Below, piece by piece: positions 171 through 63,479 of a DNA stretch of 64,000 nt. Each line of letters opens with the position of its first letter. Position 1 is the first letter of the stretch. Source of the stretch: Deltaproteobacteria bacterium (GTDB lineage: Bacteria; SAR324; NAC60-12); NCBI GenBank assembly GCA_002685535.1, contig NYXK01000109.1, positions 29,124 to 93,123 of the forward strand. Reading direction: 5' to 3'. The translations under genes and the position numbers were made by a program. The notes below the pieces were generated by a model. It was not told the DNA's origin. It did not search any database and saw only the letters and a program-made list of their open reading frames with translations.

Positions 171-3100
171 ATGTCTGGAAACCAATTCCAACGTGGCCGC
201 GGTCGCGGACGTGGAGAGCGGGGTTCATCTGACCGTGGCCACGATCGCGGTCGCGGACGTGGAGACAGGCCTCCAAGCGATCGTGGTCGTGGCTCTCATT
301 TTCAGGTCGCGAGCTTGGAGAGTCGGGGTGGTCGAGGTACTCGTGGCGGATTTGGGCGAGGCGGCCGTGGTGGTCCTGCAGAAGTTGAGGTATTCTTGTG
401 AGCAGGCTCTATTGATCAAATGTAGCCACTGACACCGACTGACGTTCCCCAGCCATGGCCCTGGCGAGTATCCCGAACACGATATCCAAGTGCGAAAGAT
501 CGAGAACGAGACTGCAAGAGCCGTTCAGCTCAAGAGTACTGGACCTCAGAAATCCATTCTTGAACCACGATTGCCCCCAAGGCCTGGTTACGGAACACAA
601 GGGAAAGAGGTCACTCTGTGGGCGAATTACTTTGAGATGGTGGCGCACAAGGACTTGATGTTGTTTCGCTATAGTATCGAGATTATACCTGTTGACACTG
701 GAGTCGGAAGAGTGCCGACCGGCAAAAGGGCGAAGAGGGTCATCGAGCTCCTTGTTGAAGAACACTTCTCTGAACACAAGAACAGTATTGCAACAGACTA
801 CAAGTCAAACCTGATTTGTAGATCAGAGCTCCCCATCGATGAAGAGGGATACCTTGTCCGGTACAGATCGGAAGACGAAGACGAACCTTCTCAAAATGCC
901 AAAGCATACAGGCTGCGTCTCCAAAGCACAGGCACACTCGCAGTTTCTGAGCTCATGGACTATCTAACTTCCAGCCATGCAAGTACCCTATTTGGATCTA
1001 AGGACGAGATCATCCAAGCACTCAACATCGTCATGGGACACCATCCAAAATCCGCCTCCAACATTTTCTCTGTGGGTGCGAATAAGCACTTCGAACTGGC
1101 CCCAGCTGCCTTTGAGACGATGAGTCTTGGAGGAGGGCTTCAGGCCATCCGAGGATTTTTCATCAGCGTTCGGTCTGCTACCTGCCGCATCCTCCTCAAC
1201 GTCCAGGTGAAACATGCTGCATGTTACGAGGAAGGCCTCCTTGGCCCATTGATATCCACATATCTAAGCCACAATGACCGAAACATGGTCAGACTCGCCA
1301 CCTTTTTGAAGAGAGTGCGCGTCCGAGTCACCCACATTATCAGGAAGAACAGAGAAGGTCGCGAAATATTCAGAATAAAGACCATCACGGGTCTGGCAAC
1401 GCCTGGAGATGGCCACGGGTTACAGTACCCTCCCATCGTGCCAAAGTTTGCTGCTGGCGCGAAAGAGGTAAAGTTTCACCTCGGTAGTCCCGAAGGACAA
1501 CCAAGTACGTCTCAACCGAGTGCGTCTCAACAAAGTTCTGCTGGAAAGAAAGGTAAGAAGGGTAAGAAGCCTATCAAGGAAGGACCTGAGCCACCTGGCG
1601 GCGGTTATATCAGCGTTTATGACTTCTTCCAAAGGAGTAAGGTGTCTGCCTATCCCCGTGTACTTGAAACTATGGTTAACGCATCTGCCAGCCCACGGCA
1701 TCACTATCACGGATCCCAATATGCCTGTTATCAATGTTGGAACTCGGCAGAACCCATCGTATTTACCACTAGACGTCTGCGTTGTCTTGCCTGGCCAGCC
1801 TAGCGGCGCAAAGCTGACTCCAGGCCAAACGCAACAGATGATACGATTTGCAGTCCGTAAACCTGCCGCGAATGCCAAGTCAATAGTCATCAATGGCGCT
1901 CGGCTTCTAGGCCTAGAGCCGCCGATAAATCCTACCATTGTGAGTTAACCATGCGCTAGTGGTGAGGGAACGCTTACCTTTGTCAGGCTGAGTTCGATAT
2001 CGCTGTGATGCCTAAGCTTATCGCCGTCCCCGGCCGGGTCTTGACAGGACCTAATGTTCGATACAAAGACGGCAAACCTGCCCAGACTCGATATGCTAGC
2101 TGGAATATGCAAGAGGTTGAATTTTCGACAAGATCAAAGCTTCCTTCGTGGACATACCTCCTCATATCGTCGCCGAGGTCGCCCGACGCATGGAGAAATG
2201 AACAGGAATTGAGTTCCACGCTGAACGCATTCCAGCGCAAACTGAGACAGCTCGGCATCGACGTGAATGATTATACTCCTGGTCTGCGCATTAACTTAAA
2301 CCCTGCCAATGTCGACGGGGATATTGATGCGGCTATCCAAAGATTCCTCAGCCATCCCACCAGACCTCCGCCAAAGCTGATTCTTGTCATAATACCTCAT
2401 CTCGATTCATCCATCTATAACCGCATCAAGTTCGTGTGCGACGTCAAGACGGGGCTGCTCAATGTCTGCACCCTAGGCTCGAAATTTGCAAAGGCCAACG
2501 ACCAGTACTACGCTAATGTTGCGCTTAAGTTCAACCTCAAGCTTGGCGGACGAAACCAGTACTTGGACAATACCAAAATTGGCATCATCGCAGAAGGGAA
2601 GACCATGGTAGTGGGCATCGATGTCACCCACCCCACGCCTGGCTCGGCATCGAACGCGCCAAGCGTGGCAGGAATCGTGGCTTCTGTAGACCCATGGCTC
2701 GGACAATGGCCGGCGGATCTCCAAATTCAGACCGCGAGACAAGAGATGGTCTCTGGCCTCGACAGTATGCTCAAGTCACGCCTTCGTCTGTGGGCGACTA
2801 AGAATAAGGGAACTTACCCCGAAAACATCCTGATTTACCGTGATGGTGTGTCCGAAGGGCAATACGAAATCGTTCTTGACCAAGAGCTACCTCTACTCCG
2901 AAAAGCGTGCGAAGAAGTCTATCCACCAAGCGATATGAAGAAGAAGCTCCCTCGCATGTCCATCATCATTGTTGGCAAACGCCATAACACTCGGTTTTAT
3001 CCAACTACCAAAGAAAGCGCCGACCGCTCTTCGAATCCTCAGAATGGCACCATTGTCGACCGCGGTGTCACGGAAGCCCGGAATTGGGACTTCTTCCTCC

Positions 3101-3471
3101 AAGCTCATACTGCCCTCCAAGGAACCGCGCGTCCAGCACACTATCACACAGTCCTAGATGAGATCTTCCGAAGCCGGAAGGCGCAACCTCCCTTCCAGAA
3201 CGCCGCAGATGTCCTCGAGGACTTGACGCACAATATGTGCTACCTATTCGGTCGCGCTACTAAGGCCGTTAGTATTTGCCCTGCCGCCTATTACGCGGAT
3301 CTCGTCTGTGAGAGGGCTAGGTGCTATTTAAGCAAGCTATTTGATGCCACACCCGGAGCCACACCCGCGGGCAGCGTGGTGTCAGGAGCAGGTGGCGGAG
3401 GCGGACAAGTGGCAGATCCGAATGATGTGCGAATACATGAGAATGTGCGTAATACGATGTTCTACATCTGA
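171..3471 (+). CDS. Argonaute (QDE-2/AGO-like), multi-exon, RGG-rich N-terminus, PAZ and PIWI domains
   Basis: ORFs 171-401, 490-1803, 1520-1948 and 2005-3471 join across GT..AG introns near 390-452, 1637-1692 and 1940-1986. PAZ/linker motif 'NMPVINVGTRQNPSYLPLDVCVVLPGQPSGAKLTPGQTQQMIRFAVRKP'. PIWI motifs 'VVGIDVTHPTPGS', 'ILIYRDGVSEGQY', 'HNTRFYP', 'ARPAHYHTVLDE'; C-terminus '..NTMFYI'. Confidence 0.95.
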
Positions 3472-9800: not shown

Positions 9801-11385
9801 CCGTCCCTAGAGAACATCAGTTACAAGGTGAGGATTCACTTGAAGTGCAACTGGGTTGAGTACCTGGAGGTCCATGAATCACGCTGAGCCTCTGCCAGAG
9901 CCCTGCTACAAAGCATGCCGCTTGCGACTTGTCAAGTCGAGTAGGCCGAGGAAGACTCAAGACGCCCTGCAGATCCATCGCATAATCGTTCTCAAGGCTA
10001 GCTATAGTACTGCGCATCATCCTGGATAGCTGATATGAGGGGCATGGTAGATCTTTTCCCTGCTTCCAATGGAGTATGTCATCTTCCAGAGACAGTTCCT
10101 TGATCTCTTGTAGTTGCCTGAGCACAGGTTCGTATGCAAAGACGGCTGTACTCAGCTGCACTACTTTTATGTTCTTCGCAGTTTTGAGCTTTAGCAAAGC
10201 TTTCTGCGTTGCCGTTTCGGAGACCTGCAAGCAAATAATCGGAGGAACCTGTGCCAGAAGGCCCTCTTCTCGTATCACTGTCGCCAACGCAGTCACCTCC
10301 TGGTCCACCATCAGACATGCCACAGACTGGTGCTTCAAAAATCTCTGATTGTCTTTGATGAATCTTTTGCGCGAGGGAATGTCCTTGCCCCTCAACTGGG
10401 GGAGATCCTGCACACACAATAGCTGAAGCGACCATGGGTCGCGCTCATCACACAGAATATCCGCTATGCTCAAGTGCTCAATGCACAAGCCCCTACCGCG
10501 TCCTTTCTTGGACGTAAGGGCGCTCTGGATCTCCTCCCGCAAATCGCGTAGCATATCTTCACGTAGCAGTCGGAATTGATTATCAGTATGCAAGGCCAGA
10601 TTAGCCTGCCCAGTATCATTTTCGCGGACTTCGATCGCTCGACGCAAGAAAGGGTCCTTTGCTGCGAGCTCGTCCGGGCTAGGGAGTATTGCAATCCTGT
10701 GTATATCCGCAAAGTCATTATCGTGACGACCGCCAGGACCACCCATGTCTGGTTTATTCGTAGTCTTGATTGTGTTGACTATATGTATAATTCTGTGCGC
10801 TCTTGTGCGAACGTCTAGTTGTGGAGATTCAAGGAGTCGTTTGTGGACTAGCGGTTCTTCGACAACCTGGGAATACGCAATCGCCTTTTCGATCGGTAGA
10901 GAGACAAGCTGTAGGAGGAGCCATGAGAACCCACCGAGACCATCCTCGTTGACCTGGTTCGATTTGACAGCATCGATGAAGGCATTCCAGGTGTACGGAG
11001 GCTCGACAATTTTCGAGACGACTTGTCGCAGAATATCGCCGCCGCAAATACTTTTTAACTCAGGCGCTTGGAGATATCGAAGAAAAGATGGTAAAGGACC
11101 GTTGAGAAAGGTGGACGATGTGTTGATCCGTAATGCCGACTGCAGAGCAAGGAATCCGTGACCACTGCTGATAAGTCTCTGGATGCATGTAGCCGGATCT
11201 GACTGATCGCAGATTGCCTCTAGGAACAAGGTTGTATTCGCATCCGTGATGCCCTGTTTACCAGAGAGTACGTTGGCGAACAAGTTCCGAAGTCTGCTGC
11301 TTCGAGCGTTGATAGCTCTGTCCGACATTGTGAAGCTCTGGTCAAGACATGACGAGCAAATGAGCGATGGGTCGTTTTCACACAA
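3840..11385 (-). CDS. NFX1/ZNFX1-type SF1 helicase fused to Cys/His-rich zinc fingers, three CbbX/CfxQ-like AAA+ domains and a coiled-coil C-terminus (one multi-exon gene)
   Basis: Minus-strand ORFs 9817-11385, 8302-9780, 7873-8136, 7043-7756, 6032-6982, 5128-5994 and 3840-5231 connect through short introns. Helicase motifs HGPPG|TGKS (split by intron), 'VVEEAGEILE', 'LILIGDHKQLRP', 'YQQHRMRPEIS', 'SSPERLNVLLSRAR'. Cys/His-rich segment 'CEHIMESRCSKGHLRRWKCHENQPSACQTCQ'. AAA modules 'GNPGT|GKT..FFLDEAYQLADG', 'GSPGTGKT..VLIIDEAYMLYSG', 'GPPG|TGKT..VLFVDEAYRLGEG'. Confidence 0.88.
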
Positions 11386-42513: not shown

Positions 42514-45432
42514 ATGTTTCGAATTTCACAGATCAAAATGAGACAGAGCAAGGTCGACACTTGGGAGAGGACAGTTCTCAACGATAGGAACTCGAATTAT
42601 CTAGGAACGGCATGTGTTGACCTGGAGGAACTCGAATTTTCCTCGGAATTTGTGCGAGAAAAAAATGAGAAGATCGTTGAGTCATTAAAAGGGAAGTTCA
42701 AAAAAGAAGGCTGCTATCGTCTCGAGCCTCGAAACCGGGTGCCTGCCCTTATTGAACCGTTCGATTTCTTAACCGTTCTTGATTTGTCAAAACTGACGCC
42801 TGACAATTTGCTAGAAAATCCTGAGGAGACACCGCCGCGATTGAAACTTCCCCTGGACCTCCGCCTTTCGTGCCTACACGGTCGGCAGCGCATTGAGGCC
42901 GCAAAGGCCGTCCTTCGAAAGCCGAAAGATCGCTGGTGGACTATAGATCTCTATACTGATGGTAAGTCATAGAACTCCTAGTCAACACGGGCAATTAATT
43001 TATTTCGCTGTAGACTCAGATCCTATCTGGCAGAGAGAGCTAGCAGAAGAATATGCCAACTCAACGAACTTCTCTGACGGCGAAATTTACCGTAAGATTT
43101 ATCAGTATATCTTGGAGCAAGACAAGCTCGCGGAAAAGAAGTGGTGGGCTCGTCTCACGAAGAAGAAGAGCGAATTTTTGAACCGCTTCTTTAAGCATAA
43201 ACGTTTTCCCGCGGCATTTAATGCACTTACAGATATACCTGGAATCTGGGACGGCCTAAATATCGGTGTTCTAGATAAAATGATGGCCTTGAAGTGCGAT
43301 GAGGTAAGTAATCAAGGGGTTTATGGTAGACATCGCTCTGACTTCCCTTAGGAAATTATACACTACCTTGAGGAACATATCTTACAAATATGGTCTTACA
43401 TATTTGGAGACGACCAAGAACTTATGAAGCTAGCCGATCGGGAGTCAGTCAAATTGGTGGAACTAAAAGCTCCAGGGCTATCACGAGGAGATCTTGAGCT
43501 CTTGCGGGGGCCAATGCAGAATAAAAAGCTTTTCCCTTTGATTCGTGCCCAGAACCAGCGGGAAATGATCTGGACGCGCTTGAGTAGCATCGAAGATCCA
43601 ATCCCTACAATCCATACTCTATTCGAGGACGTGAAGTATCTCAGACCATTGCAGAGAGCGATAAGAAAGCTTTTACCATCGGACTTCAAAGGAACAATTC
43701 GCAAAGCCTTAAGGCGGGCCTTCACCGGAACTCACCAAGAAGGGGGTGTGTTTAAGGTCCAGACCGGGGCGCAGAAGTTTACTTTTTGTACTGGAAGTGT
43801 GGAAGACCAGGTATGGTATGGGATCCTGCACCTTTGGCTCTACGCCATGCGACATTTCGATAGACTAGTGGGAGAATGTCCAAAGAAAGAAGAAAAGCAA
43901 GCCCTTCCCGCACCTCAAAAGCCTAGTTCGCTGCTTTGGCATAAATTCGGGCTTCTGGCGGACACCCTAGGGTTTGCTACGAAAGAGATTAAGATTTTAA
44001 AACAGAAGAATCCGGACGCTGAAGTGGCATATGCGGCGTTGTTAGAGGCTCGGGACCCTGATTACTTCACTTATGATGAGAGTTTCGTTCTGCGACACCT
44101 CAGAAGAATGAAACGGATGTTTGACACTGCAATCGAGAAGCCAGATCCAGGTGGCCAACCTACTCTCCTTGTTGACGGTCCTGGCGAGGCAGTTTCCCGA
44201 CGATGCGGTCGTATTTTCGAGAACGCGCACTCACGCACCCGGAAATATCTGTTCTTGCGATCCATTTATGAACCGACTATTGGTGAAGGGGATGGGATAT
44301 CTTCATTTTTTGTCCGAAGGTCAGTCTTCTTTGCATTCTTTGGGAGACCTCCCAAGAATTCTCTGTTTGAACAGCAGGGAGGAAATCCGCCATCACCAGA
44401 TTTAGAAGACGTTATGCAGGTAGATTATGATCATGCAACTACTTCTTCTGATAGGAGCACAAGTTCTTCTCCAAAATCTACCACCTCCGAAGATTCCGCG
44501 AGTACTTCTGCGATATCTGAAGATACCACAAGCGCTGTGCAGACTCCCGTGCCACCCGGCACCACACAAGCCGACCCAGCGGAAGGACCAAGTCAACTCA
44601 CTTGGGATATGAATCCCCTGGTTCAAGAGAGTCATATGATAGCTCAACCTCAAGCTTCAGAGAGCCAGATGATGGTAGGTCCTCAGATGCCAGAGAATCA
44701 AATAATAGTTCGACCTCAGACGCCCGAGAATCAAATAATAGTTCGACCTCAGACCCCGGAGAATCAAATAATAGTTCGACCTCAGACCCCGGAGAATCAA
44801 ATAATAGTTCGACCTCAGACCCCAGAGAATCAAATAATTCGGCCTCAGACCCCGGAAAATCAGATGGTACTTCACCAGACTCCCGAGAGTCAGATGATAA
44901 CACCGATAGAACCTCCGTCTAGGGCAAGAATGCGACTAACACGCGAGGAGGAAGAACCACCTGCGGACGTTTTTTTACGCGGGAAAAGGCGTAAGTTAAG
45001 ACAGAATGAGGATATTAACGCTTCAGAGCATATGGTAATTATAATGCCCCTCTTTAGAGTCATGCTAATAGCTAGTAGGAGGGCGAGCATACACGGAACC
45101 AATACAGCAATACCAAAGATAGGGTATCCTTCGTACTTCGTCAGCCGGGTGGCCAGCTAATCTCAATGAAATTGAACTGCACACGTACTGAAGCTGAAGA
45201 CATAGCTAGGAAATTTGTCGCGGCACGTATAAACCTATTTAATCAAAGTGATAGTGGCCTAACCGTAGGTAATTGTTTCGATGCAGTTCTACTCGATCCC
45301 GACAGATGTGTTTATCTGCGACAGCCACCGGAATTAAGTCAATACCAAGTTGAATTATCGGATGCATCTGTCCGATTTCGAAGCGCTATGGGGGAAGTCC
45401 AGACAATAGAGGAAATAGATGAAGAGCTGTGA
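42514..45432 (+). CDS. DUF3723-like protein, multi-exon, with 11-aa repeat near the C-terminus
   Basis: 'LPLDLRLSCLHGRQRIEAAKAVLRKPKDRWWTIDLYTD', 'FSDGEIYRKIYQYI', 'EIIHYLEEHILQIWSYIFGDDQELMKLADRESVKLVE'. An intron at about 45033-45080 (GTAATT..GCTAATAGCTAGTAG) joins '..EGEHTRNQYSNTKDRVSFVLRQPGGQLISMKLNC..' to ORF 45166-45432. Confidence 0.72.
44690..44870 (+). repeat. 33-bp coding tandem repeat (11-aa ENQIIVRPQTP)
   Basis: GAGAATCAAATAATAGTTCGACCTCAGACCCCG repeated about five times. Confidence 0.95.
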
Positions 45433-49867: not shown

Positions 49868-52861
49868 ATGGCAGACCTCACGGAGAAAGTAGAAGCTCTT
49901 GAGAGGCGACTCGACAAGTTATCGAACGTATTCGACCATATCCGAAAATCTCTCACCTCGAAGCACCCCAAGCGGCGCCACTCAGTTCGCACCAAGACCC
50001 CAAGCGGACGACCGGAATGGGTGGAGGAAATTGTTCAGCATTTCAATGAAATTTCAGCAGAATTAAAGAGCGTCAAGAAGACGCTCGACACACGCTCATC
50101 CACGGACACTGGCACTTCGCAAAGCGATGCATCAGCGACGAATGCTGAAGCTGCGCCAGAAGCCGAGTTGCAGTATGAAGCTCCCTCACAACGTCAGTGT
50201 GCAGAACAGGTGCCTCCAGCAATTCCTGAAAATGGACAGCAAGAATCAGTGGCCACCAATGCACCTGAGCCAGTGGGGCTCCCATCTCCACCTTCACCTC
50301 CAGGCCAGAATATCACGACAAAAGAGCCTCCGCCACAGGCCCATCAAGTACCTGTTAGCTGCGAGTCCTCGCTCAGACCAGCGTCTTTAAACGAATCTCT
50401 CAGCCGCACGACTCAACTGAATGACGCATTTCTTGATCTACAGTCCGAGGAAGGCAACGCACCAACGTTTCACTGCAATTATGAAGACATTAGCGGAAAC
50501 CTCAACGAAGGAAAGCTGGAGCGCTTCTCTTCCGACCCAAGAGTCAAGAAAAAGGGCTTTTTCAAAATTACAGTCGGAGACTTACCACCTCTCAATGTGA
50601 GAGAGGCTAGTTTTGTGCAGCCGGGGAAAGATCATTGCACGAACTTCTCTTCCCAATCGGATTCTCAAGGCTTCGTCAAGCTGAGTAAAGAACAAAATCG
50701 CGAAATTGTATTCCCTGGCTTTCCCCTTCCTGAAAGCCAGAAGGAGTCCTGGTCTCAGGAAGAATTAAAACAGTTTTGGGAGACAACGCTCAGGAAGCTT
50801 CCACAAGACATGTCTTACGTGATCGGGGATCCTCTATTTCCAGATATTGAGCTTAGCCCAGGAGAAGGTCTGAAACGAATAGATGGTTATGAGAACCTTA
50901 GCGGCATTGGGACAACTTATGCCTATCTCAGCGGCGGGGTGTGTTTTTCAATCATGCATAAGGAGGATGCAGAGTTTCTCTCATTAAATCTGTTACGATC
51001 TGGGGGCCACAAACTTTGGCTTCTAGTAGAGCCAGCTTACGGGGAAGAACTAGAGCGTCACATGCGTCAGGAATTTCCCGGGATGGCAACTTGCTCCCAG
51101 GCCGTACGCCATCTTAGCCGTGCTATTCTCCCGAGTAAACTGGACGAGTGGAAGATTCCGTACTCTCTTATCTATACTAAACCAGGAGAGGGTGTCGTAA
51201 CGATGCGCGGAACATATCACCAGGTCTTAAATGAGGGGGATGGCAACTACGCCATTGCAATCAACCTTTTACCCAGTTCGTTGCCAACCATTCCCAAGGG
51301 CTACAAATTTTGTCAGAAAACCTGCCACCCGCATGCAATAACGGCAGCGGACTTACGACTTCGTGCGGAGGGGCGTCCATTGGTCGAGGTTCAAGCAAAC
51401 AAAAGGACCTGTCCGCGACGAGACAAAGTCACAGCGGTACAACCGAATATTATCCCTTCGAAAAGGAATGCAATACAGGCCGAGGTTCAAGCAAACAAAA
51501 GGACGCGTCTACCGCGAGACAGAGTCACGGCCCTGCAACCGAGTATTATCCCGTCGAAAAGGAAGGCAATTCCGGCCGAGTCCCAGTCGGGGACGCCCCT
51601 AGTCCCGCCTCAAATAGGCAGTCTCTTGGAGGCCGTTTGTGGGAAAGAGGCCTTTCATCACTTGTGCTCTCTGATCTATAGCTGGAGAGATCGGTCGAAA
51701 CCGTTTTTCGAGAATAATGGCGGTGCTCCCGCTGTGCAACTCGTACAAGCCATTGGTGCTTTAGAGAAAAAGTCACACCTCACCGAGTTCTTGGACCGCT
51801 TCGCGAAGGTGAAGCTAGTGGAAGTGATAGACGGGAAAAAGGACGGCCGGGTGCAAGCAGATCCAGTGGCTATTACAAACCTCATAAATGGCCTTAGGTG
51901 GGAGAACGATAGAACGAACCGCAAGAAGTTACATCGCTACCTTGACGAAGGCCGGCGATGGAAAAAAATATGTGGCAGTTTCGATGGCCTTTTGTGCCTC
52001 ATTCCTCCGAACCGGGAGAATGGGGGAAATCTCCACGTGTCTGGAAGTGCGTTTAAGGAGCTCTCTGGCAGAGATATCGAGCTGTTTCACTCTCTTCTAA
52101 ACACCAATAAGTTTATACAGCCTTTGTGTCGCGTGGGGAAAACGTTTCAAGCATCGATTTTGTCTGACGCGGAAGTCCCTGAGTTCAAATGGGAGGGTGA
52201 AGATCCAAAAGAGATCTCTCGAATGTCCATGAAAGAGCTGGATCCGTTCATGGCGAAGTTCCATGTGATAACGGAAAATGAGTACAAGCCCGAGAAATAT
52301 GATTGGCCTAAACCGGACCGTTGGCTTTGGGACTGGCCACAGCACCCTATGTGGGTTCCCTCTTCTGATCGGCAATGCGAGCTATGCGATCTATGCACAA
52401 AGGAAAACATTTGCGATTGCATCACTACCTGTTTACCTGAGAACAAGCCTCGGATCACGAATGAAGGGCGAAAGGGGCAAGGCGTTCGTGCGATTGGCTT
52501 GACGTACTTAAAAGATCAAATCCTAGGGGAATTTTGCGGGGAAATCGTGCCCCTAGAGACGCACGAAGATGGCTGGCCTATGGAGTTTATCAGACCCGAT
52601 CTGAATGATGAGCCTGTCGCCCAGATTTACCCGAGAGAAAGAGGCAATTGGGTGAGGAAGGTGAATCACTCGTGCGACCCTTCTACAAAGTTCCGTGTAA
52701 TGAAGATATCTGGGTGGTGGAGGCAGATGCTCGTCGCAACTCGTGAAATTCCGCACAATTGCGAAATTACGGCCTTTTGTGGACGGAATTTCTTAAAGGG
52801 ACAGGGAAAAGAATGTTTATGCGACGGCTGCAGTGGGTGTTCAACACCCCAACGAGGCTGA
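49868..52861 (+). CDS. JmjC + SET domain fusion protein
   Basis: Single ORF. JmjC: 'GTTYAYLSGGVCFSIMHKEDAEFLSLNLLRSGGHKLWLLVEP' and 'IPYSLIYTKPGEGVVTMRGTYHQVLNEGDGNYAIAINL'. SET: 'RKGQGVRAIGLTYLKDQILGEFCGEIV', 'NWVRKVNHSCDPSTKF', 'MLVATREIPHNCEITAFCG', 'CLCDGC'. Cys-rich pre-SET-like 'CELCDLCTKENICDCITTC'. Confidence 0.85.
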   Translation: MADLTEKVEALERRLDKLSNVFDHIRKSLTSKHPKRRHSVRTKTPSGRPEWVEEIVQHFNEISAELKSVKKTLDTRSSTDTGTSQSDASATNAEAAPEAELQYEAPSQRQCAEQVPPAIPENGQQESVATNAPEPVGLPSPPSPPGQNITTKEPPPQAHQVPVSCESSLRPASLNESLSRTTQLNDAFLDLQSEEGNAPTFHCNYEDISGNLNEGKLERFSSDPRVKKKGFFKITVGDLPPLNVREASFVQPGKDHCTNFSSQSDSQGFVKLSKEQNREIVFPGFPLPESQKESWSQEELKQFWETTLRKLPQDMSYVIGDPLFPDIELSPGEGLKRIDGYENLSGIGTTYAYLSGGVCFSIMHKEDAEFLSLNLLRSGGHKLWLLVEPAYGEELERHMRQEFPGMATCSQAVRHLSRAILPSKLDEWKIPYSLIYTKPGEGVVTMRGTYHQVLNEGDGNYAIAINLLPSSLPTIPKGYKFCQKTCHPHAITAADLRLRAEGRPLVEVQANKRTCPRRDKVTAVQPNIIPSKRNAIQAEVQANKRTRLPRDRVTALQPSIIPSKRKAIPAESQSGTPLVPPQIGSLLEAVCGKEAFHHLCSLIYSWRDRSKPFFENNGGAPAVQLVQAIGALEKKSHLTEFLDRFAKVKLVEVIDGKKDGRVQADPVAITNLINGLRWENDRTNRKKLHRYLDEGRRWKKICGSFDGLLCLIPPNRENGGNLHVSGSAFKELSGRDIELFHSLLNTNKFIQPLCRVGKTFQASILSDAEVPEFKWEGEDPKEISRMSMKELDPFMAKFHVITENEYKPEKYDWPKPDRWLWDWPQHPMWVPSSDRQCELCDLCTKENICDCITTCLPENKPRITNEGRKGQGVRAIGLTYLKDQILGEFCGEIVPLETHEDGWPMEFIRPDLNDEPVAQIYPRERGNWVRKVNHSCDPSTKFRVMKISGWWRQMLVATREIPHNCEITAFCGRNFLKGQGKECLCDGCSGCSTPQRG

Positions 52862-52913
52862 TCGTGCACGGGCCACGGTGCCGCACTTCGGCACCGTGGC
52901 CCGTGCACGATCA
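52859..52913. repeat. perfect 25-bp inverted repeat with 5-nt loop
   Basis: TGATCGTGCACGGGCCACGGTGCCG-CACTT-CGGCACCGTGGCCCGTGCACGATCA. Confidence 0.98.
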
Positions 52914-62470: not shown

Positions 62471-63479
62471 ATGGCTAGACATCAGCGTGCTACAAAGCTA
62501 GCCGAGCGTCAACCTCGACGACACAAACCGTGCAATAAGCCAGCACCCACATGTCGCAGTCGCATGGGGGACGCAGGACGACCAAGCTACCTTGACATAC
62601 GCCAACTTACCGCGGGCTGTGGCCATCTCGCCGGCCAAGCTGAACGCCTCGCTGCGCTGCGAGAGATATTTTCCACTCGAAAGAAGATTGCGGTCGTAAG
62701 TGGCGCTGGCATCTCTGTGAATGCGGGCAGTGAGTCTTCCACCTCTCCGATGCATGAGATAATTCATCTAATATACTCTTGTAGTCCCCGACTTCCGCAA
62801 TAGTTCCGGCCGCAACTGCAGCCGCAACCTGTTCGATGTACGGGTCAACAGCTCAGATTTCCACGAGATGATTTCTAATATGGGAACTTGTGCTTCCCAA
62901 GCCGACCCCACCAAGTTTCACCACCTTCTCAATTGCTTCGCTGGGACAGACCGGCTCCTCTGTAATCTCACGCAGAATATCGACTGCCTTGAGGACAAGT
63001 TGCCTTTGTTGTCTAGCAAGACTGTCCAACTTCATGGGCGACTGGATACGCTGGTTTGTCAGAGGCGAAGCAGTCATGCCTTCCAGGTAGCCCCAGAAGA
63101 CTTTCAAGCAAGGATTATGTCACCGTGTCCAGATTGTGAGACGGTTGATAAGGAACGAGTGCAGATGGGGAAACGATCACACGGTGTTGGGGTGCTACAA
63201 TCCAAAATACTCCTCTATGGGGCCGGACCAGAGTCCGTGATTGGAGATAAATTGTTGGACGAGCTGTTTCAAAAGGTGGACGCAGTCATTATTGCGGGGA
63301 CAAGATTGCAGATTAAGTCACCGAACAGACTCGCAGCAGAACTGTGTCGAGCGGCAAAATGGAGGAACGGCCTCACCGTGTGGGTTAACAAAGAGCGGCC
63401 GCCACGGGAGTTTGAATCTCTTCTGGATTATGTGGCACTTGGGGACTGCGATGAGTTTGCTTCGTTGATTGCGGCATAG
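62471..63479 (+). CDS. sirtuin, Hst3/Hst4-like NAD-dependent deacylase
   Basis: 'KIAVVSGAGISVNAG|VPDFRNSSG' (intron 62730-62784), 'NLTQNIDCLED', 'VQLHGRLDTLVC', 'CPDCE', 'GKRSHGVGVLQSKILLYGAGPES', 'VIIAGTRLQI', 'VWVNKERP'. Confidence 0.85.

What the first reader, a model, noticed from the sequence alone, without database searches (positions are those of the whole stretch)
49868..52861. One uninterrupted ORF encodes both a JmjC demethylase-type domain and a SET methyltransferase-type domain
Seen: a KDM4/JARID-style JmjC core with the Fe(II) triad apparently kept (MHKED gives H and E; TYHQVLN gives the distal H) and the HKLW lysine. About 400 residues later there is a Cys-rich pre-SET-like segment, GEFCGEIV, NHSCDP and a post-SET-like CLCDGC. 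Established: JmjC and SET normally act as an eraser and a writer in separate polypeptides. Inference: a fused reader/eraser/writer or bifunctional lysine-methylation switch, with a uniquely fungal middle region. I am not aware of this as a characterised architecture.
Basis: partly seen in the sequence, partly recalled or inferred. Interest (0 to 1): 0.82.

Follow-up and report, generated by a model that had tools for sequence, protein, structure and literature searches.

The report
Fungal JmjC–SET protein, SET probably dead
This fungal gene really does join a histone-demethylase-type domain to a histone-methyltransferase-type domain in one protein, but that combination was reported in mould-type fungi in 2008, and here the methyltransferase half has lost tyrosines that such enzymes need, so it is more likely an eraser carrying a binding or targeting module than an eraser-writer switch.

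Summary
Window 49868-52861 (+) is one uninterrupted 997-residue ORF with significant JmjC (1.1e-16, residues 359-463) and SET (3.4e-7, residues 882-969) Pfam matches.

The JmjC core is closest to KDM4. It keeps the Fe(II) ligands (H364, E366, H451), the 2-oxoglutarate lysine (K382) and probably a KDM4-type zinc site, but no JmjN is detected.

The SET domain keeps the G-x-G and NH cofactor motifs. It has Cys971 where the motif-IV catalytic tyrosine belongs (EITAFCG) and Phe889 at the motif-II tyrosine.

A homologue on another contig of the same bin (C65) has the same N-terminus, middle region and SET, 59% identical over the shared C-terminal part, but no JmjC. It carries the same Cys and a Leu at motif II. 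dN/dS of about 0.12 argues that both genes are maintained, and the collinear flanks argue against a chimaera.

The architecture is not new: "JmjC-SET" was described in filamentous Ascomycota in 2008 (PMC2474616), with its SET suspected inactive. I found no biochemical characterisation.

Most likely this is a 2-oxoglutarate oxygenase (histone demethylase) with a catalytically dead SET-plus-middle module that targets or regulates it. A bifunctional writer/eraser is disfavoured, not excluded.

The parts
49868..52861 (+). JmjC-SET ORF, 997 aa plus stop, no intron needed
   Evidence: Pfam JmjC and SET on one frame
49868..50437 (+). N-terminal coiled-coil-like and low-complexity region (residues 1-190), shared with the JmjC-less homologue on C65
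   Evidence: blastp 4e-12, 27% identity over residues 1-190; tblastn 31% over residues 1-147
50897..51331 (+). KDM4-like JmjC core (residues 344-488): Fe ligands H364, E366, H451; 2OG Lys K382, Asn374; putative Zn site C409, H415, C482, C486
   Evidence: Pfam JmjC 359-463; KDM4D 1.4e-15 in PDB, alignment; residue positions; C482/C486 assignment partly from own knowledge of KDM4
51382..51573 (+). in-frame tandem repeat, 2 x 96 nt (2 x 32 aa, EVQANKR...), in the linker between JmjC and the middle region
   Evidence: 82% identity between copies
51605..52375 (+). conserved middle region (about residues 580-836), no Pfam/NCBIfam match over cut-off; conserved with the C65 homologue
   Evidence: dN/dS about 0.20
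52376..52432 (+). Cys-rich pre-SET-like segment CELCDLC...CDCITTC (residues 837-855)
   Evidence: sequence; partly conserved in homologue; no Pfam pre-SET/AWS match
52442..52840 (+). SET domain and post-SET-like tail (residues 859-991): GQG 870-872, GEFCGE 887-892, NHSCDPS 933-939, EITAFCG 966-972, CLCDGCSGC 983-991
   Evidence: Pfam SET 3.4e-7, 3.7e-8 as isolated region; PDB Set1/ASH1L/NSD3/SETD2
52778..52780 (+). Cys971 codon (TGT) at the position of the motif-IV catalytic tyrosine
   Evidence: alignment with Set9 and SMYD-like SETs of the same bin and with the homologue; conserved in the homologue
52859..52913 (.). perfect palindrome, 25-nt arms and 5-nt loop, starting in the stop codon; related palindrome about 50 nt after the homologue's stop

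Best explanation
A filamentous-fungal JmjC-SET protein in which the JmjC domain is the only working catalytic centre. The JmjC core is a KDM4-like Fe(II)/2-oxoglutarate oxygenase, most likely a lysine demethylase. The middle region and SET form a separable module that keeps the SET fold and cofactor motifs but has lost the catalytic tyrosines. That module most likely acts as a non-catalytic targeting, substrate-binding or SAM-sensing part rather than as a writer. Shown: one ORF, both domains, complete JmjC Fe/2OG residues, Cys/Phe at the two SET tyrosines, a JmjC-less homologue with the same SET substitution, purifying selection. Inferred: demethylase activity, absence of methyltransferase activity, the targeting role, histone substrates.
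For: JmjC 1.1e-16, with the HxE...H and Lys residues aligned to KDM4D. SET 3.4e-7. EITAFCG in both proteins against EITVYY in the Set9-like, ELTYDY in the Set1-like and EIFISY in the SMYD-like SETs of the same bin; the Set9 comparison has no gap across 23 residues up to the CxCxxC. Motif II is EFCGE here and ELLGE in the homologue, against EYVGE in Set1. Yeast Set1 Y1054A and Y967A are null and Y967F is partial (PMC3585878). The middle-SET part exists without JmjC on C65. dN/dS is about 0.12 over 396 codons, dS saturated. The SET of JmjC-SET was suspected inactive before (PMC2474616).
Against: No activity data exist. The NH cofactor motif is intact, unlike in inactive SET3/MLL5 (RR), so SAM may bind and residual or monomethyl activity is possible; Set1 Y1054F and Y967F keep some activity. 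JmjN, needed by KDM4 enzymes, was not detected, so the JmjC may not be a KDM4-type demethylase. The structure predictions were uninformative (pLDDT 37 and 34).
Confidence: 0.57

Rival explanations
1. True bifunctional eraser/writer: JmjC demethylates one lysine while the SET, with a Cys-modified active site, methylates the same or another lysine, giving a single-protein methylation switch.
For: Both folds are significant; G-x-G and NH motifs and the Cys-rich zinc-like segments are kept; the SET is under purifying selection in two genes; a diatom SET-JmjC was proposed to have dual activity (PMC3145265).
Against: Motif-IV Tyr is Cys in both genes and motif-II Tyr is Phe/Leu; equivalent Ala mutants of Set1 are null; no enzyme assay exists for any JmjC-SET protein that I could find.
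Confidence: 0.12
2. Scaffold with two non-catalytic domains: JmjC acts structurally, as suspected for DMM-1 and Epe1, and SET as a binding module, controlling heterochromatin spread or a complex.
For: No JmjN; [quoted passage not shown] SET tyrosines are lost.
Against: The JmjC Fe/2OG residues are all kept, which a purely structural domain would not need to preserve.
Confidence: 0.2
3. Prediction or assembly artefact: two neighbouring genes, or a chimaeric contig, read as one ORF.
For: No transcript data; the contig is a fungal contaminant of a prokaryote bin.
Against: 997 codons open in one frame; both sides of the JmjC segment match a single ORF on another contig in order; a simple scan of the linker (51280-51640) for in-frame GT-AG intron candidates with a CTRAY branch site found none.
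Confidence: 0.04

Closest known systems
JmjC-SET proteins of filamentous Ascomycota (N. crassa, A. fumigatus, M. grisea; Veerappan et al. 2008, PMC2474616)
   Same: Filamentous-fungal protein with JmjC N-terminal to SET in one polypeptide; SET predicted not to be an active methyltransferase; family reported as patchy and divergent (also PMC9692433).
   Different: The 2008 family was linked to SET3/4 by Arg substitutions in the catalytic motif; here NHSC is intact and the lost residues are the tyrosines. Direct homology could not be tested (no fungal protein database in the tools).
KDM4/JMJD2 demethylases
   Same: Best PDB match of the JmjC (KDM4D 1.4e-15), with the same Fe/2OG residues and apparently the same Cys-His zinc ligands.
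   Different: No JmjN, PHD, Tudor or AT-hook detected; carries a SET instead.
Set9/KMT5 (Suv4-20) and Set1/ASH1/SETD2 SET methyltransferases
   Same: SET fold and motifs; the C-terminal segment aligns without gaps to the bin's Set9-like protein (EIT..., CxCxxC).
   Different: Cys replaces the motif-IV tyrosine, Phe the motif-II tyrosine; Asn of NHSCxPN is Ser.
SET3/MLL5-type inactive SET proteins
   Same: A SET domain conserved although catalytic residues are lost.
   Different: MLL5/SET3 lose the NH cofactor motif (RR); this protein keeps it. No PHD finger.
Phaeodactylum tricornutum SET-JmjC protein (PMC3145265)
   Same: Both domains in one transcript.

Membership tests
fungal JmjC-SET family (PMC2474616) | JmjC and SET in one polypeptide, JmjC first | tested here: met
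   JmjC 359-463, SET 882-969 on one ORF
fungal JmjC-SET family (PMC2474616) | found in filamentous Ascomycota | tested here: inconclusive
   Contig carries DUF3723, 2EXR, DUF7730, Argonaute and Dicer-like genes, which points to Pezizomycotina from own knowledge; species unknown
fungal JmjC-SET family (PMC2474616) | Arg substitutions in the catalytic SET motif as in SET3/4 | tested here: not met
   NHSCDPS kept at 933-939; the loss is Tyr to Cys/Phe
fungal JmjC-SET family (PMC2474616) | sequence homology to the N. crassa / A. fumigatus / M. grisea proteins | not testable with these tools
   no fungal protein or genome collection; genome contigs and viral-contig scans gave no relative
KDM4/JMJD2 | JmjC Fe(II)/2OG residues (HxE...H, Lys) | tested here: met
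   alignment to KDM4D: H364, E366, H451, K382
KDM4/JMJD2 | JmjN domain | tested here: not met
   no PF02375 match at E up to 10
KDM4/JMJD2 | demethylation of H3K9/H3K36 | not tested
   needs enzyme assay
active SET-domain lysine methyltransferase | SET fold significant | tested here: met
active SET-domain lysine methyltransferase | NH cofactor motif | tested here: met
   N933-H934
active SET-domain lysine methyltransferase | motif-IV catalytic tyrosine | tested here: not met
   Cys971, same in homologue
active SET-domain lysine methyltransferase | motif-II tyrosine (EYxGE) | tested here: not met
   Phe889; Leu in homologue
active SET-domain lysine methyltransferase | pre-SET or AWS and post-SET models matched | tested here: not met
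   Cys-rich segments present but no Pfam match

The most novel reading that the evidence does not exclude
A genuine single-chain lysine-methylation switch in which a KDM4-like JmjC eraser works with a SET domain whose active site has been re-tooled around a conserved cysteine (a non-canonical writer or a SAM/methyl-state sensor that gates the demethylase). The JmjC-less homologue would be the writer or sensor alone.
Probability: 0.1. Interest if true: 0.78.

Novelty: new variant of a known kind. Interest (0 to 1): 0.38.

Why it matters
JmjC-SET is a fungus-specific fusion of an eraser fold and a writer fold that has been noted since 2008 without functional work that I could find, and a recent survey set it aside as ungroupable. 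This case adds two testable facts. The SET half has lost catalytic tyrosines while staying under purifying selection, and the same SET-plus-middle module occurs without JmjC. That turns a vague 'bifunctional switch' into a direct test of pseudo-methyltransferase against non-canonical writer.

Tried and rejected
Relatives elsewhere: genome contigs with the whole protein and with the JmjC core, viral contigs with the JmjC core and with the two-protein alignment, and whole-genome searches of 191 relatives and the 52 available genomes of the bin's phylum gave nothing beyond the same bin. Eukaryotic genomes are not in these collections, so absence means little.

Structure: AlphaFold2 without useful alignments gave mean pLDDT 37 (JmjC) and 34 (middle + SET); too poor to judge active sites or to run a fold search, so none was run.

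phmmer of the last 42 residues gave no PDB hit, so the Tyr-to-Cys assignment rests on alignment with the bin's own SET proteins.

HMMER's alignments to Set1 and ASH1L put a 2-3-residue gap at EITAFCG. I preferred the ungapped alignment to Set9, which keeps the downstream CxCxxC in register.

Starship-borne cargo was considered because of a DUF3723 gene about 5 kb upstream and a DUF3435 match on the homologue's contig. No DUF3435 match lies on the window's contig, so it is only noted.

Full report
WHAT IS THERE. Window 49868-52861 (+) is one open frame of 997 codons; the longest stop-free run in 20 shuffles of the window was 232 codons. Pfam finds JmjC at residues 359-463 (E 1.1e-16) and SET at 882-969 (E 3.4e-7), both over their cut-offs. 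No JmjN, PHD, Tudor, pre-SET, AWS or post-SET model is matched, also when the pieces are scanned alone. The window lies on contig C113 of a 7.28-Mb assembly filed as a prokaryote, but its genes (DUF3723, 2EXR, DUF7730, Argonaute, Dicer-like RNase III, SIR2) look fungal, so the contig is a fungal contaminant of the bin (inference). The species is not known.

THE JmjC DOMAIN. By sequence the best solved relatives are KDM4D (1.4e-15), KDM4A, 4C and 4B, then JMJ14 and KDM5. The alignment keeps the Fe(II) ligands H364, E366 and H451, the 2-oxoglutarate lysine K382 and Asn374. It also aligns C409 and H415 with the KDM4D Cys and His that, from my own knowledge, bind zinc. C482 and C486 sit where KDM4 has its other two zinc cysteines; that step is from memory and not tested. 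A demethylase-type active site is therefore complete on sequence, but the missing JmjN means that it is not filed as a KDM4.

THE SET DOMAIN. GQG 870-872, GEFCGE 887-892, NHSCDPS 933-939, EITAFCG 966-972 and CLCDGC 983-988 follow the SET motif order. Solved relatives are Set1, ASH1L, NSD3, SETD2 and, weakly, SUV420H2. The same bin encodes other SET proteins that serve as internal controls: Set1-like (C103), Set9-like (C17), SMYD-like (C16) (these names are my reading of the sequences). Against the Set9-like protein the 23 residues from EIT to CxCxxC align without a gap, and the motif-IV tyrosine (EITVYY) falls on Cys971. Set1-like ELTYDY and SMYD-like EIFISY also have Tyr there. In motif II, Set1's EYVGE corresponds to EFCGE here. 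In yeast Set1, Y1054A (motif IV) and Y967A (motif II) abolish H3K4 methylation in vivo, Y967F and Y1054F are partial, and N1016A is null (PMC3585878). MLL5, with two active-site tyrosines replaced and the NH motif changed to RR, has no intrinsic activity (PMC5094779). The present SET keeps NH, so SAM binding remains possible.

A HOMOLOGUE WITHOUT JmjC. A whole-genome search found a second gene in the bin, on C65. It matches residues 557-989 at 59% identity and residues 1-147 at 31%, in the same order and within one ORF, but has nothing corresponding to the JmjC. It also has EITAFCG, and ELLGE in motif II, so the loss of the motif-IV tyrosine predates the split of the two genes or was selected in both. 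Over 396 aligned codons dN/dS is about 0.12 (dS saturated), so both proteins appear maintained. Because the flanks of the JmjC segment match a continuous ORF elsewhere, an assembly chimaera is unlikely. Whether the two genes are paralogues of one fungus or homologues from two fungi in the bin is not settled, and the direction (JmjC gained or lost) cannot be told from two sequences.

HOW IT MOST LIKELY WORKS. Best-supported reading (0.57): a JmjC 2-oxoglutarate oxygenase, probably a lysine demethylase, carrying a middle-plus-SET module that is no longer a methyltransferase and serves to bind or sense its target. Shown: the ORF, domains, residues and conservation. Inferred: activity, substrate and the role of the SET. 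A single-chain writer/eraser switch (0.12) needs a SET that works with Cys and Phe in place of two tyrosines. A scaffold with no catalysis at all (0.2) is possible in view of DMM-1 and Epe1, for which PMC9676040 reports no detected activity.

WHAT IS KNOWN. The architecture is already in the literature. PMC2474616 (2008) described JmjC-SET as a combination unique to filamentous fungi, one gene in N. crassa and A. fumigatus, a duplication in M. grisea, and suggested that the SET might be inactive because of SET3-like Arg substitutions. PMC9692433 (2022) set JmjC-SET genes aside because they did not group. PMC3145265 reports a diatom SET-JmjC in reverse order with transcript support. No functional study turned up. 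The present protein shares the architecture but not the Arg substitutions in NHSC, and homology to those proteins could not be tested here; hence 'new variant of a known kind'.

LIMITS. No eukaryotic sequence collection was available, the two structure predictions failed (pLDDT 37 and 34), and there are no expression data.

Noticed in passing
window 52859-52913; G000:C113:24025-24065 (L016 about 10026-10066); G000:C65:4356-4396: Perfect 25-nt-arm palindrome starting in the JmjC-SET stop codon. A near-identical copy lies 57 kb away beside a Dicer-like gene, and a diverged one (same outer GCACGRGCCA/TGGCYCGTGC ends) lies about 50 nt after the stop of the JmjC-less homologue; these are the only three in the bin at that stringency. 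Could be a 3'-UTR hairpin or a small dispersed element.
   Followed up: partly
G000:C113:24324-26783 (L016:10325-12784 -) and window 490-3471: Dicer-like protein (two RNase III domains, Dicer_dimer; no helicase in this ORF) next to an Argonaute (ArgoN, ArgoL1, Piwi), followed by AAA-type ATPase and AAA_11/AAA_12 helicase ORFs: an RNA-silencing gene neighbourhood.
   Followed up: partly
window about 42712-45160: DUF3723 gene about 5 kb upstream of the JmjC-SET; DUF3723 matches occur on seven contigs of the bin. It is a gene family that I recall as common Starship cargo.
   Followed up: partly
G000:C65:7719-8291 (L011): DUF3435 (Starship captain family) match, 6.3e-47, about 1.4 kb from the start of the JmjC-less SET homologue, in divergent orientation.
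   Followed up: partly
window 51382-51573: In-frame tandem duplication of 96 nt (2 x 32 aa) in the linker between JmjC and the middle region, 82% identical.
   Followed up: no
G000 (whole bin): 7.28-Mb bin of a genus whose other listed members are 1.3-3.3 Mb; it holds fungal contigs with Set1-, Set9- and SMYD-like, DUF3435 and DUF3723 genes, so the extra megabases are probably fungal contamination despite the listed 4.35%.
   Followed up: partly
window 62868-63479: SIR2-family match (Pfam 2e-14) 10 kb downstream of the JmjC-SET.
   Followed up: no
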